From assembly GCF_014199525.1 (NCBI RefSeq), contig NZ_JACHNU010000001.1, positions 1,404,182 to 1,468,181 of the forward strand: a DNA stretch of 64,000 nucleotides. The letters are read 5' to 3'. The stretch is from Conexibacter arvalis (lineage in GTDB: Bacteria; Actinomycetota; Thermoleophilia; Solirubrobacterales; Solirubrobacteraceae). Positions within the stretch are counted from its first letter, which is position 1; each line of letters begins with the position of its first letter. The notes under the pieces are model-generated. The model ran no database searches. It was not told the origin of the DNA and saw only the letters and a program-made list of their open reading frames with translations. A program made the position numbers and the translations under genes. Below, piece by piece: positions 29,395-34,387 of the stretch.

Positions 29395-31029
29395 TTACGG
29401 CGCGGGCGTCGGCGCGCTGGGCGTCGTCTCGCCGGCGGGCGGCGGGGCCGGCGTCGTCGACGCCGGCGGCTCCGTCGGGGTGGTCGTCGCCGGCGGCTCG
29501 GCCGGGGTGGTGACGGCCGGCGGCGGCTCGACCGGAGTGGTCGTCGCGGGCGGCGGCGTGATCGCGGTCGTCGGCGGCGGAGCGGGGGCGGTCGTCGTCG
29601 GCGGCTGGGCGCTGACGACGGTCTGCGGCGGCTGGTCGGCCGGCAGCTCGGCCGGGAGCGCGGTCGTCCCCGACTCGACCTGCGTCTGGCCGGGCGGCGG
29701 CGCCGGCGTCGTCGCTGCCGGAGCGGTCGGGGTCGTCGTCGCCGGAGCGGTCGTCGTCGGCGCCGGCGTCGTCGTGGTGGTCGTCGCGGCCGGCTCCGTC
29801 TCGGTCGCTCTCGCCGCGGCCGCGGACTCCCCGCTCGGCGCTCTTCTCGCCTCGCCGGTCGCGCCGCTCGCGGGCGCTCTTCTGACCGGTGCGTCGAGCG
29901 CGCGCTGGACGTGGCTCGGGGCGGCGTGGACGGTCGGCTCGGCGGTCACGCCGGCCGGAGCCTGCGCGTAGACCGGCGCCGGCGGCGAGCTGTCGCCGCG
30001 CGGGACGCGATGCTCGATCTCGACGGCGCCGGCGGTGACGAGCGCAGCGGCGGCGAGGCCGGCGGCGGCCTTCGTCGCGACGGTGCTCATGCCGGCGGAG
30101 ATCAGGCCGCCGGTCGCGGTGCCGGCGACGGCCGATCCGGCCGCGGCGCCGGCGGCGCCGGTCGCGCTCGCGCCGCCGCCCGCGCCGGCCGAGATGCCGA
30201 GGTTGGCGAGGACGACCTTTCTCAGCGCCAGCACGAAGCCGACCGGCATGACGGCGGCGAGCGCCTTGTTGGTCGACTTGAGCTGCTGGCGGAAGCCGGC
30301 GCAGCCCGCGCACGTGCGCAGATGGCGGCGGACGGGCGGGCTCGTGCGCCGCTTGAGGCCCTCGGCGATCTCGCCGAGCTCGAGCCGCACCTCGTCGCAG
30401 GAGAGCTGACGCGCCTCGGCCGCCTCGGCGAGCGAGACGCGGGCGCGCACCAGCAGCGACTTGACGCTCGGGATCGTCGTCTCCATCGCCTCGGCGATCT
30501 GCTCGTAGGAGAGCGCGTCGATCTCGCGCAGCAGCAGCGCGGTCCGCTGCGTCTCGGGCAGGTCCTGCACGTCCGCGATCAGCTCGCGGAACTCCTCGCG
30601 CTTGTGGACCTTGTCCGCCGTCGTCGTGCCGTGCTCGGCGAGGTGGACGTCCATCGAGTCGACGCCGATCGGCTGCTGGCGGCGGAGATGGTTGAGGCTG
30701 CGGTTGCGCGCGATCCGGTACAGCCACGGACGGGCGTTGATCGGCCGGTCGTCGGCCAGGATCGCGTTGAAGGCCGCGGCGAAGACCTCCTGCAGGACGT
30801 CCTCGGCGTCCTCCCTGGAGCCGAGCATGTGGCGGCAGAACGAGAGCAGCCGCGACTGATACCGGCCCACCAGCGTCTCGAAGGCGCCGTGGTTGCCACG
30901 GCGCACGAGCGCGATCAGGCGCTCGTCCGACTGGAGACGGAGCAAGGGCGAGCGGCCGTGGATGCCGGCGACGCCGGCGTGCTTGAGGGCAGAGACTTCC
31001 ACAGGGCGAATCCTCGACAGTTGGGACAC
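29395..31029 (-). CDS. ECF sigma factor fused to ZAS-type zinc domain, membrane segment and Pro/Thr-rich outer tail
   Basis: 544 residues. Sigma-70 region 2 (about 35-105, DAEDVLQEVFAAAFNAILADDRPINARPWLYRIARNRSLNHL) and region 4 (about 150-205, LPETQRTALLLREIDALSYEQIAEAMETTIPSVKSLLVRAR) are intact. Then a zinc-binding anti-sigma-like motif (CDEVRLELGEIAEGL...RRHLRTCAGC), hydrophobic helices (about 262-345, with ATKAAAGLAAAALVTAGAV) and about 190 residues rich in Pro, Thr and Ala. A sigma factor held to the membrane by its own anti-sigma domain is the likely design. Gap of 54 nt to the upstream membrane gene. Confidence 0.88.
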   Translation of the reverse strand: MSQLSRIRPVEVSALKHAGVAGIHGRSPLLRLQSDERLIALVRRGNHGAFETLVGRYQSRLLSFCRHMLGSREDAEDVLQEVFAAAFNAILADDRPINARPWLYRIARNRSLNHLRRQQPIGVDSMDVHLAEHGTTTADKVHKREEFRELIADVQDLPETQRTALLLREIDALSYEQIAEAMETTIPSVKSLLVRARVSLAEAAEARQLSCDEVRLELGEIAEGLKRRTSPPVRRHLRTCAGCAGFRQQLKSTNKALAAVMPVGFVLALRKVVLANLGISAGAGGGASATGAAGAAAGSAVAGTATGGLISAGMSTVATKAAAGLAAAALVTAGAVEIEHRVPRGDSSPPAPVYAQAPAGVTAEPTVHAAPSHVQRALDAPVRRAPASGATGEARRAPSGESAAAARATETEPAATTTTTTPAPTTTAPATTTPTAPAATTPAPPPGQTQVESGTTALPAELPADQPPQTVVSAQPPTTTAPAPPPTTAITPPPATTTPVEPPPAVTTPAEPPATTTPTEPPASTTPAPPPAGETTPSAPTPAP

Positions 31030-31083
31030 CGTAGCAGCGCCCGAGTTGCGGATTTCCCCTTGAAACCCGCCTCGCGCGGGCCC

Positions 31084-31878
31084 TTACTGGCGCGTTCGCG
31101 CGCGTCTGCGGCGGCTCGCCGCCTCGGTCGCGAGCAGCGCCAGCGCGACCGGAACGGTCGCCGGGAGCGTGTCGAGCCAGATGAAGAGCACGTCGAAGCA
31201 GAGCGCGAAGGCGAGCGTCATCAGCGCGATCCGTCCCTGGCGCCGCCCCTCCGCGGCGACGAGCGCGCCGAAGACGCCGGCGATGAAGTAGTCGCCGTAG
31301 CCGATCACCGCGTGGCCGAAGTGGGCCCGCTGCAGCTGCGGCAGCTCGGCCGGCGGCGCGGCGGCGTTCAGGACGGTGCTCGCCGGCTGCAGGGTCTCGG
31401 CGCCGATCAGGATCGCGTCGGCGACCGCCATCAGCACGATCCCGACCTTCAGCCAGCCGTGGGGCGCGACGGAGACCAGCAGCACGCCGAGCGTGACGCA
31501 CGAGAGCATCACCAGCAGCGACGCGGCCGCCTCGCCCGGGAGCTCCTCGCGCGCCTGCCAGGCGAGCGCGAACAGCGGGATCGCGAGCAGCGCCAGCGAC
31601 GGTCGGCCGCCGTGCATCGTCCAGCCGAGCGCCGCTGCCGCCAGCGGCGGGATCGCGATCAGCGCCAGCCACGTGAGCGCGTCGGCGGTCTGCCCCTCGG
31701 CGTTGACGGCCCACACGACGAGCGCGATCGAGGCGAGCGGGACGAGCGCCCACCACGGGCTGCGGAGCCGCGCGGCGAGACGCTCGAGCGCCGGCAGCGA
31801 GTGGCCGCGCGGAAGCGCGACGGCGGCGGCCTGGAGGCCGAGCAGGCAGATGTTCGAGGCCCAGAACTCGCGCGTCAT
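31084..31878 (-). CDS. Polytopic membrane protein with GxGD motif (presenilin/SPP-like candidate)
   Basis: 264 residues with about eight hydrophobic helices. One helix holds an Asp in VADAILIGAE (Asp154); 42 residues later HAVIGYGDYFIAGVFGAL holds GYGD (Asp196), and the last helix has TLPATVPVALALL. That order (Asp, GxGD, Pro-Ala-Leu) is that of family A22 intramembrane aspartyl proteases, although the Asp154 motif and PAL are imperfect. It lies upstream of the membrane-tailed sigma factor on the same strand, so cleavage of that tail is a testable idea. Certain: integral membrane protein; uncertain: protease. Confidence 0.7.
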   Translation of the reverse strand: MTREFWASNICLLGLQAAAVALPRGHSLPALERLAARLRSPWWALVPLASIALVVWAVNAEGQTADALTWLALIAIPPLAAAALGWTMHGGRPSLALLAIPLFALAWQAREELPGEAAASLLVMLSCVTLGVLLVSVAPHGWLKVGIVLMAVADAILIGAETLQPASTVLNAAAPPAELPQLQRAHFGHAVIGYGDYFIAGVFGALVAAEGRRQGRIALMTLAFALCFDVLFIWLDTLPATVPVALALLATEAASRRRRARTRQ

Positions 31879-32079
31879 CGGCCTCGAATGATCGCTCAGC
31901 GGGCGCGCGGGCGAAGGGTGAGCGCGCGCTTATCAGATTCTCGCGAGAGACGCCGCCGGTTCCGGCTGGCGGAGGGGGATTTCCACCGGCACACGAACGC
32001 CTCAAGACGACCCCCCCGAACGGAGGGAGCTGCCTATCCTGGCCTTTGAAATGCCCGTCGCTACCCTCAAGGTGCGCCC

Positions 32080-33204
32080 ATGTCCTCCTCCGTATCCAGC
32101 TCCGTAGCCAAGCCCCGAGCCACACCTCGCCGCGATCGGCGACGAGGCGGGGGAGGGGCGCCGGAGACCGGGCACGGACTCGACCTGTACGAGCAGATGG
32201 TGCTGATCCGCCTGTTCGAGGAGGAGGTCGAGCGGCAGTACAAGCGGGCGAGAATCGGCGGCTACTGCCACCTCGCCTCGGGCCAGGAGGGCGCCACCGT
32301 CGGCGCGGTCCACTCGATGAGAGACGAGGACCTCCTCTTCTCCTCCTACCGCACCCACGGCCTCGCGCTCGCCAAGGGCGTCGACCCCGACGAGGTGATG
32401 GGCGAGCTGTTCGGCCGCGAGGGCGGCTCCGCGCACGGCCGCGGCGGCTCGATGCACCTGCTCGACTACTCGAAGGGCTACCTCGGCGGCTGGGGCATCG
32501 TCGCCGGCCAGCTGCCGCTCGCCGCGGGCGCCGCGCTCGAGATCTCCTACAAGGACAAGAGAGCGGCCGTGATGTGCGAGATGGGCGACGCGGCGACCAA
32601 CATGGGCGCCTGGCACGAGGCGCTCAACCTCGCTGCGATCTGGGACCTGCCGCTCGTCACCGTCGTCTTCAACAACAAGTACGGCATGGGCACCTCCGTC
32701 GAGAAGGCCTCCGGAGAGCCCGACCTCTACAAGCGCGCTGCCGCCTTCCGCATGCACGGCGAGCGCGTCGACGGGCAGGACGTCGAGGCCGTGCTCGAGG
32801 CCTCCGAGCGGCTGCTGGAGATGGCCCGCGAGGAGCGCAAGCCCTCCGTGCTGGAGATCATCACCTACCGCTACCGCGGCCACTCCGTCGCGGACGCCGG
32901 CACGGCGTACCGCACGCAGGAGGAGATGGAGGAGTGGAAGAAGCGCGACCCGATCGTCCTCTTCCGCGAGCGCCTCGTCGAGGAGGGGCGCGCGACCGCG
33001 GCCGACCTCGACGCGATCGACAAGCGCGTCGAGGAGCGCGTCGTGCAGTCGGTCGAGGCGGCCGAGGCGAGCCCCGAGCCGCCGGTCTCCTCGCTCGCAC
33101 AACACCTCTACGGCGACCCGGAGAGCGCTGAGCAGTTCTCGCGCATGGGTCCCGGCAGCCCGTTCGGCGAGCGCGAGCTCGTCCTGGAAGGACTCGGCAG
33201 ATGA
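32080..33204 (+). CDS. pdhA: Pyruvate dehydrogenase-type E1 component, alpha subunit
   Basis: 374 residues. ThDP-dependent decarboxylation of pyruvate (or a branched-chain oxoacid) in a 2-oxoacid dehydrogenase complex. Seen: LYEQMVLIRLFEEEVERQY, GGYCHLASGQEGATVGAV, YRTHGLALAKGVDPDEVM, GGSMHL and the ThDP/Mg motif GDAATNMGAWHEALN ending VVFNN. The second residue pair of that motif is GDA rather than GDG. A basic, Ser-rich 35-residue N-terminus is extra. ATGA overlap with the beta subunit. No E2 or E3 gene follows; a tRNA does. Confidence 0.93.
   Translation: MSSSVSSSVAKPRATPRRDRRRGGGGAPETGHGLDLYEQMVLIRLFEEEVERQYKRARIGGYCHLASGQEGATVGAVHSMRDEDLLFSSYRTHGLALAKGVDPDEVMGELFGREGGSAHGRGGSMHLLDYSKGYLGGWGIVAGQLPLAAGAALEISYKDKRAAVMCEMGDAATNMGAWHEALNLAAIWDLPLVTVVFNNKYGMGTSVEKASGEPDLYKRAAAFRMHGERVDGQDVEAVLEASERLLEMAREERKPSVLEIITYRYRGHSVADAGTAYRTQEEMEEWKKRDPIVLFRERLVEEGRATAADLDAIDKRVEERVVQSVEAAEASPEPPVSSLAQHLYGDPESAEQFSRMGPGSPFGERELVLEGLGR

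Positions 33205-34303: not shown

Positions 34304-34387
<84 letters not shown>

What the first reader, a model, noticed from the sequence alone, without database searches (positions are those of the whole stretch)
31084..31878. Bacterial presenilin-like GxGD membrane protein beside a membrane-tailed sigma factor
VADAI (Asp154), then GYGD (Asp196) and a terminal Pro-Ala/PVAL helix match the order of A22-type intramembrane proteases. It sits 54 nt upstream of a sigma factor whose own C-terminus crosses the membrane. A regulated cleavage freeing the sigma part would be a compact signalling unit.
Basis: inference. Interest (0 to 1): 0.55.

Follow-up and report, generated by a model that had tools for sequence, protein, structure and literature searches.

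The report
Bacterial presenilin/SPP-like membrane protease family
A soil bacterium carries an unannotated membrane protein that looks, in predicted shape and active-site residues, like the human presenilin and signal-peptide-peptidase enzymes; it belongs to a family spread through one class of bacteria, and its neighbouring sigma-factor gene is probably there by accident.

Summary
The 264-aa ORF at 31084-31878(-) is a real gene: relatives occur in 96 of 146 genomes of its family and, with a relative as query, 57 of 249 of its class. D154, G193-x-G195-D196 and P239-A240-T241-x-P243 are invariant in 42 of 42 aligned proteins. In 23 further relatives D154 is kept in 23 and D196 in 22, although the letters around D196 change. 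Pfam and NCBIfam give no significant match and PDB sequences none, but two predicted models (pLDDT 95 and 92) match presenilin, SPPL2a and PSH structures at Z up to 17.5 and 18.1, against at most 4.7 for unrelated chains listed. Charge distribution gives N-out/C-in, the SPP orientation, in 42 of 42. The sigma-factor 'unit' does not: sigma matches occur in 43 of the 50 family genomes without the protease gene, adjacency is confined to this genus in the loci seen, and the gap holds a conserved promoter-like element of the sigma gene's own. Best reading: SPP-like intramembrane aspartyl protease, new to the family libraries searched, substrate unknown.

The parts
31084..31878 (-). Presenilin/SPP-like membrane protein, 264 aa; predicted nine TM helices (3-21, 41-60, 63-87, 93-108, 113-137, 140-159, 194-209, 214-231, 241-263), a short helix 163-172 and two strands 184-187/190-193 before the GYGD
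   Evidence: ORF; family alignment A1; AlphaFold2 model pLDDT 95, pTM 0.92; VIA-align Z 17.5 to SPPL2a
31417..31419 (-). Codon of Asp154, proposed first catalytic aspartate, TM6
   Evidence: Invariant in 42 of 42 and in 33 of 33 of the second alignment; coordinate from the ORF frame
31291..31302 (-). Codons of G193-Y194-G195-D196 (GxGD), Asp196 proposed second catalytic aspartate, start of TM7
   Evidence: G193, G195, D196 invariant in 42 of 42; D196 in 32 of 33 of the second alignment
31150..31164 (-). Codons of P239-A240-T241-V242-P243, the PAL-like element just before TM9
   Evidence: P239, A240, T241, P243 invariant in 42 of 42
31025..31049 (-). Conserved promoter-like element GCAACT-N4-CGCTGCTACGGTGTC upstream of the sigma gene, in the protease-sigma gap; points to separate transcription
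   Evidence: Single match in the 64-kb window and in the 5.2-Mb genome at up to 3 mismatches; in 13 of 30 sigma loci fetched, six of them from other genera (genera). The standard sigma-70 consensus scan did not flag it
29395..31002 (-). Neighbouring ECF-type sigma factor with ZAS-like motif, weak TM candidate and Pro/Thr/Ser-rich tail; judged NOT functionally tied to the protease gene (listed ORF starts at 31029, homology starts at 31002)
   Evidence: Pfam Sigma70_r2 and r4_2; matches in relatives; ZAS and hydrophobic stretches; start

Best explanation
The protein is a divergent bacterial intramembrane aspartyl protease of the presenilin/SPP fold. Asp154 (TM6) and Asp196 (TM7, GYGD) would activate water inside the membrane, and the conserved PATVP turn before TM9 would hold the unwound substrate strand, as the PAL motif does in gamma-secretase. 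Its N-out/C-in orientation is that of SPP/SPPL, so it should cut segments with the N-terminus in the cytoplasm: spent signal peptides, signal anchors or type II proteins after a first cut outside. Shown: the gene family, the conservation, the predicted fold, the charge pattern. Inferred: catalysis, substrate orientation and role. It looks like a stand-alone membrane enzyme, with neighbours that differ between genera; the neighbouring sigma gene is probably a separate transcription unit that became adjacent in this genus.
For: Invariant D, GxGD and P-A-T-x-P in 42 aligned proteins. In 23 further relatives the aspartates stay (D154 23, D196 22) while neighbouring motif letters change. Model pLDDT 95: the 19 best rows are all SPPL2a, presenilin or PSH entries (Z 17.5 to 9.9; next, unrelated, 4.7). 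A second model from a GWLD member: the 21 best rows are all of that superfamily (Z 18.1 to 9.5; next 4.2). Foldseek's first ten rows are all gamma-secretase or PSH. Two strands directly before GYGD, as the enzyme's beta1/beta2 that form a hybrid sheet with substrate in gamma-secretase (start of abstract of PMC10290658 in the search listing). K+R on the L12/L34/L56/L78/C side exceed the other side in 42 of 42. SPP/SPPL have N-out topology and cut type II substrates, and PAL contacts substrate in gamma-secretase (passages of PMC7768045). No neighbour shared across genera was seen in the loci compared, though some genera share one.
Against: No significant Pfam or NCBIfam match and no PDB sequence match; PF06550 finds nothing in this genome or in 296 genomes of the phylum. 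Foldseek E-values are modest (best 0.03, none at 0.001) with TM-scores 0.40-0.57 (by query length) and rmsd 5.0-7.7 for those ten rows, and Z 12.5 for PSH is below the tool's own caution level of about 13 for helical bundles. Profile comparison with SPP is weak (hhalign probability 2.4%, score 21.7; best of 40 block-shuffled controls 16.9) and with presenilin 1 no better than controls (13.6). The Tyr of the YD motif is absent and PAL reads PAT. One relative has GWGE and nine have Leu or Met at the second glycine, odd for an obligate GxGD enzyme. Aspartate distance was not measured. No activity data.
Confidence: 0.72

Rival explanations
1. One reading: the protease specifically cleaves the membrane-anchored neighbouring sigma factor and frees it to act on RNA polymerase.
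For: Adjacent and co-oriented in 6 of 7 genus genomes, counting G000 and the contig-end case G026. The sigma factor would be N-in/C-out, the orientation an SPP-like enzyme cuts. Fused sigma/anti-sigma proteins activated by proteolysis are known: IutY (cut by Prc and RseP), and ECF48/52/53 are expected to be (passages of PMC8999054). The consensus scan found neither a promoter nor a terminator between the genes, so read-through is possible.
Against: Sigma matches in 43 of 50 family genomes without the protease gene. Not within the fetched flanks of any of 33 other-genus protease loci. Conserved promoter-like element of its own in the gap. Usual neighbour elsewhere is tRNA-Leu(taa). In G031 the two genes are 4 kb apart. 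The genome has site-2 protease (PF02163) matches that could do the same job. TM of the sigma factor is weak.
Confidence: 0.08
2. A presenilin-fold protein that is no longer, or never was, a protease: for instance a binding, scaffold or transport protein that keeps the aspartates for another reason such as ion or proton handling.
For: Second glycine of GxGD replaced by Leu/Met in 9 of 23 further relatives and D196 by Glu in one; PAL reads PAT; fold alone shows no function (notes).
Against: Both aspartates and P-A-T-x-P are strictly kept in 42 of 42 of the closer group, the pattern of an enzyme active site.
Confidence: 0.15
3. A prepilin-peptidase-like (A24) GxGD enzyme that processes pilins.
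For: A24 enzymes also carry a GxGD motif (recalled; the GxGD-type enzyme FlaK appears in the search listing as PMC4985597).
Against: PF01478 is not among the 15 families reported for the 42 members. Structural matches standing out are all of the presenilin/SPP fold; absence of A24 chains from those lists proves nothing. The PAT element after GxGD has no A24 counterpart (recalled). No pilin genes were recognised among the few neighbours scanned with Pfam.
Confidence: 0.03

Closest known systems
Signal peptide peptidase-like 2A (SPPL2a; PDB 9k92, 9k93) and SPP/SPPL, MEROPS A22B (MEROPS label recalled)
   Same: Predicted fold over 241 residues (Z 17.5, rmsd 3.9), order Asp - GxGD - P-A, N-out/C-in orientation by charge
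   Different: 13% identity; no Tyr before Asp154; PAT instead of PAL; no N-terminal PA domain as in SPPL2 proteases (abstract start of PMC12043953 in listing); bacterial; no A22 Pfam match
Presenilin 1 (catalytic subunit of gamma-secretase), A22A (label recalled)
   Same: Fold over 250 residues (Z 16.8, rmsd 4.1), strands before GxGD
   Different: 10% identity; opposite membrane orientation; no long TM6-TM7 loop (presenilin loop recalled)
Archaeal presenilin homologue PSH/MCMJR1 (PDB 4hyg, 4y6k); PF06550 assignment recalled
   Same: Fold over 217 residues (Z 12.5, rmsd 3.9); prokaryotic
   Different: 12% identity; PF06550 finds nothing in this genome or in 296 genomes of the phylum
ECF48/52/53-type sigma factors with fused ZAS domain and TM (the neighbour, not the finding)
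   Same: Sigma domains, H-x3-C-x2-C, Pro/Thr/Ser-rich tail (passages of PMC8999054)
   Different: Group assignment not tested; TM weak; no carbohydrate-binding domain reported by Pfam

Membership tests
A22 presenilin/SPP proteases (PF01080, PF04258, PF06550) | Match to a curated family model | tested here: not met
   No A22 Pfam family reported for any of 42 members at E up to 10; PF06550 none in G000 at E 1 and none in 296 phylum genomes at E 0.01
A22 presenilin/SPP proteases (PF01080, PF04258, PF06550) | Presenilin fold with nine TM helices | tested here: met
   Predicted models only:
A22 presenilin/SPP proteases (PF01080, PF04258, PF06550) | Aspartate in TM6 | tested here: met
   D154, 42 of 42, 33 of 33, in helix 140-159
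A22 presenilin/SPP proteases (PF01080, PF04258, PF06550) | Tyr before the first Asp (YD motif) | tested here: not met
   Position 153 is A 26, I 8, V 2, S 2, T 2 of 42; the other two are not printed, and rows with L (L062) and C (L004) are seen
A22 presenilin/SPP proteases (PF01080, PF04258, PF06550) | GxGD at the start of TM7 | tested here: met
   42 of 42; in 11 of 23 further relatives
A22 presenilin/SPP proteases (PF01080, PF04258, PF06550) | PAL motif before or in TM9 | tested here: not met
   P-A conserved in 42 of 42 in the right place, but third residue is Thr (PAT)
A22 presenilin/SPP proteases (PF01080, PF04258, PF06550) | The two aspartates face each other | not testable with these tools
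   Coordinates of the model were not returned; only inferred from fold and positions near the same membrane face
A22 presenilin/SPP proteases (PF01080, PF04258, PF06550) | Aspartate-dependent intramembrane cleavage | not testable with these tools
   Needs an assay
SPP/SPPL subgroup | N-out, C-in orientation | tested here: met
   K+R bias in 42 of 42, a prediction
A24 prepilin peptidases (PF01478) | Match to PF01478 | tested here: not met
   Not among the 15 families reported for 42 members
A24 prepilin peptidases (PF01478) | A24 fold | tested here: inconclusive
   No chain recognised as A24 among the 50 rows listed in each, which does not exclude it

The most novel reading that the evidence does not exclude
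Thermoleophilia carry a class-wide, so far unrecognised bacterial branch of the presenilin/SPP superfamily: active, cofactor-free, SPP-oriented intramembrane aspartyl proteases, some of which have given up the second glycine of GxGD (GWLD/GWMD) while keeping both aspartates. That would show that the glycine equivalent to presenilin-1 G384 is not essential to the catalytic fold.
Probability: 0.5. Interest if true: 0.75.

Novelty: new variant of a known kind. Interest (0 to 1): 0.6.

Why it matters
Presenilin and SPP enzymes are studied for Alzheimer's disease and immunity, and the prokaryotic model in use is archaeal PSH. A compact 264-aa bacterial family with SPP orientation would give a new model, a natural experiment on the GxGD glycine, and a test of what these enzymes do in cells without the eukaryotic substrates. 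It also suggests that family models miss this superfamily in bacteria.

Tried and rejected
Protease-sigma operon: rejected as a conserved unit. Sequence-level proof of A22 membership: tried with Pfam, NCBIfam, PDB phmmer and profile hmmsearch and hhalign; only a weak local alignment of GYGD with GLGD. Promoter or terminator between the two genes by consensus scan: none of either found in 30900-32150; the promoter-like element rests on conservation alone. Relatives outside the class: six phylum genomes outside the class gave E 7e-4 to 0.01; one (L140) was read and holds no such protein in the frame translated, the other five were not examined. Plasmid records: no tblastn match. The phage, viral and metagenome collections were not searched. 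A24 chains were not recognised among the structural matches listed, which excludes nothing. Conserved gene partner elsewhere: neighbours differ between genera, though some genera share a set (for example clusters c1, c2 and c3 in 10-11 loci). In that script 37 of 41 loci kept the protease ORF after a codon-composition filter; L043, L053, L054 and L066 lost it. Literature: searches listed no paper whose title or shown abstract describes a presenilin/SPP-type protease in Thermoleophilia; passages of three papers were read, the rest were seen as listings only, so this is not proof of absence from print. One search (sigma-factor terms) found no paper.

Full report
What is there. The window lies in a 5.2-Mb genome; the two named relatives found are Conexibacter species. 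The ORF at 31084-31878(-) encodes 264 residues with Asp154, GYGD/Asp196 and LPATVPVAL in the stated order. A paralogue of 40% identity lies 219 kb away in the same contig.

Family. With the window protein as query, 96 of 146 genomes of the family match at E 0.001 and 59 of 151 of the order; with a relative (L029) as query, 57 of 249 of the class. In the phylum sample 14 of 396 match at E 0.01: eight within the class, the window's own genome included, and six outside with E 7e-4 to 0.01; one of those six was read and is spurious. Within 42 aligned proteins, D154, G193, G195, D196, P239, A240, T241 and P243 are invariant. A second alignment of 33 holds ten of these and 23 further class members, mostly more divergent: D154 is kept in all, D196 in all but one (L152, GWGE). 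In the 23, GxGD is intact in 11, GWLD or GWMD in nine, and DYGD, EYAD and GWGE in one each. The L140 hit was dropped before that alignment as not a member.

Sequence comparison with known families is nearly silent. Pfam gives nothing and NCBIfam only a sub-threshold hit for the window protein; no A22 model is reported for 42 members; the PDB sequence searches give nothing. PF06550 is absent from this genome and from 296 genomes of the phylum, while it finds Haloferax and Methanosarcina among its controls. In hhalign the family profile aligns GYGD with the GLGD of SPP at score 21.7, above the best of 40 block-shuffled controls (16.9), and with GLGD through PA of presenilin 1 at 13.6, no better than controls. 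Taken alone this would prove nothing.

Structure decides the fold. AlphaFold2 on the 42-row alignment gives pLDDT 95.0, pTM 0.92: nine helices of TM length, a short helix after TM6 and two strands directly before GYGD. Foldseek ranks gamma-secretase and PSH chains in the first ten places, with modest E-values (0.03 to 0.74) and TM-scores (0.40 to 0.57 by query length). VIA-align gives SPPL2a Z 17.5 (rmsd 3.9, 241 residues), PSEN1 16.8 (4.1, 250), PSH 12.5 (3.9, 217); the first unrelated chain has 4.7. The tool warns that Z below about 13 can be a common arrangement in helical bundles; the gap to unrelated chains argues against that here. A second model, made from a divergent GWLD member with a 24-row alignment, has pLDDT 91.8 and gives SPPL2a Z 18.1, with the first unrelated chain at 4.2. 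The two alignments share four rows, the window protein among them, so the models are not fully independent.

Orientation. Counting K+R in loops and tails, the side with L12, L34, L56, L78 and the C-terminus exceeds the other in 42 of 42, so N-out/C-in. That is the SPP/SPPL orientation, and those enzymes cut type II proteins, whereas presenilins have the opposite orientation (passages of PMC7768045). Asp154 lies near the outer end of TM6 and Asp196 at the outer start of TM7, so both are near the same face; their distance was not measured.

The sigma factor. The ORF downstream has sigma-70 regions 2 and 4, a ZAS-type motif in 30 of 30 orthologues and an Ala-rich hydrophobic stretch whose mean hydropathy is 1.48 in the window protein and above 1.5 in 17 of 30 (two rows, L087 and L105, too short to score, and several others cut by contig ends). 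A second, more hydrophobic stretch lies at about residue 257. Its homology starts at 31002. Matches at E 1e-50 occur in 134 of 146 family genomes; in six of them (G007, G009, G067, G084, G104, G131) the best E is only 4.6e-52 to 2.8e-69, which may be a paralogue, leaving 128 (where at most 15 candidates per genome were scored). Combining the lists by hand: both genes in 91, protease only in 5, sigma only in 43, neither in 7; with the stricter sigma count 86, 10, 42 and 8. The sigma gene is within the fetched flanks of none of 33 other-genus protease loci nor of the three paralogous genus loci; flanks are about 4 kb at most and shorter at contig ends. In the seven other-genus genomes with the protease gene and the best sigma match on one contig (G005, G006, G022, G078, G079, G114, G123) the closest pair is 217 kb apart. 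Within the genus it is adjacent in six of seven genomes and 4 kb away in the seventh.

Separate transcription. The 81-nt gap holds GCAACT-N4-CGCTGCTACGGTGTC at 31025-31049(-), unique in the window and in the genome at up to three mismatches. The same element (one with a 5-nt spacer) is in 13 of 30 sigma loci fetched, seven from the genus and six from other genera; the other 17 lack it. It is in none of 35 further protease loci examined (two of those 35, L069 and L073, are paralogous copies in genus members). It resembles an extended -10 promoter by eye, an inference; the sigma-70 consensus scan flagged no promoter and no terminator there. Outside the genus the sigma gene lies beside tRNA-Leu(taa) in 15 of 16 loci given to ARAGORN, of 23 held. 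In the window tRNA-Leu(taa) is at 34304-34387(-), with two genes on the + strand (E1 dehydrogenase by Pfam, and a downstream ORF that I call pdhB from memory) and the protease gene between it and sigma; in G027 no PdhA or PdhB match was found and the protease gene begins just after the tRNA. The simplest history is that the protease gene entered between tRNA-Leu and sigma in this genus.

Mechanism. Shown: family, conservation, predicted fold, charge pattern. Inferred: a catalytic aspartate pair that cuts N-in/C-out membrane segments. The sigma factor could be such a substrate by topology, as IutY is for RseP (passages of PMC8999054), but the genome also has site-2 protease matches and sigma persists where the protease gene is missing.

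Known or new. The fold and motif order are those of presenilin/SPP. Because no curated A22 model matches, YD lacks its Tyr and PAL reads PAT, I do not file it as an A22 member; I call it an A22-like family. Archaeal homologues are in print (passages of PMC2947513). My searches listed no paper on such a protein in this class, judged from titles and abstract starts.

Noticed in passing
31025-31049 (-): A 25-nt promoter-like element that is single-copy in the genome yet conserved at one sigma-factor gene in 13 of 30 loci, across three genera; possibly an autoregulated or dedicated promoter.
   Followed up: partly
29395-31002 (-): Sigma factor with built-in ZAS-like motif and Pro/Thr/Ser-rich tail, with strong matches (E 3e-84 or better) in 128 of 146 family genomes; group and signal unknown.
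   Followed up: partly
L144, L147, L148, L153, L156-L160: Relatives with GWLD or GWMD in place of GxGD, both aspartates kept; L147 modelled and still presenilin-fold.
   Followed up: partly
L152:1435-2259 (-): One relative has GWGE, i.e. Glu in place of the second catalytic Asp; may be inactive or a sequencing error.
   Followed up: no
L002:1474-2355 (+): Second copy (40% identity) in the same genome with all motifs; second copies also in other genus genomes.
   Followed up: partly
34304-34387 (-): tRNA-Leu(taa), the usual neighbour of the sigma gene in other genera, separated from it here by two genes on the + strand and the protease gene.
   Followed up: yes
L034:4870-8882: In G031 about 4 kb lies between protease and sigma genes, with a 1285-aa open frame.
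   Followed up: no
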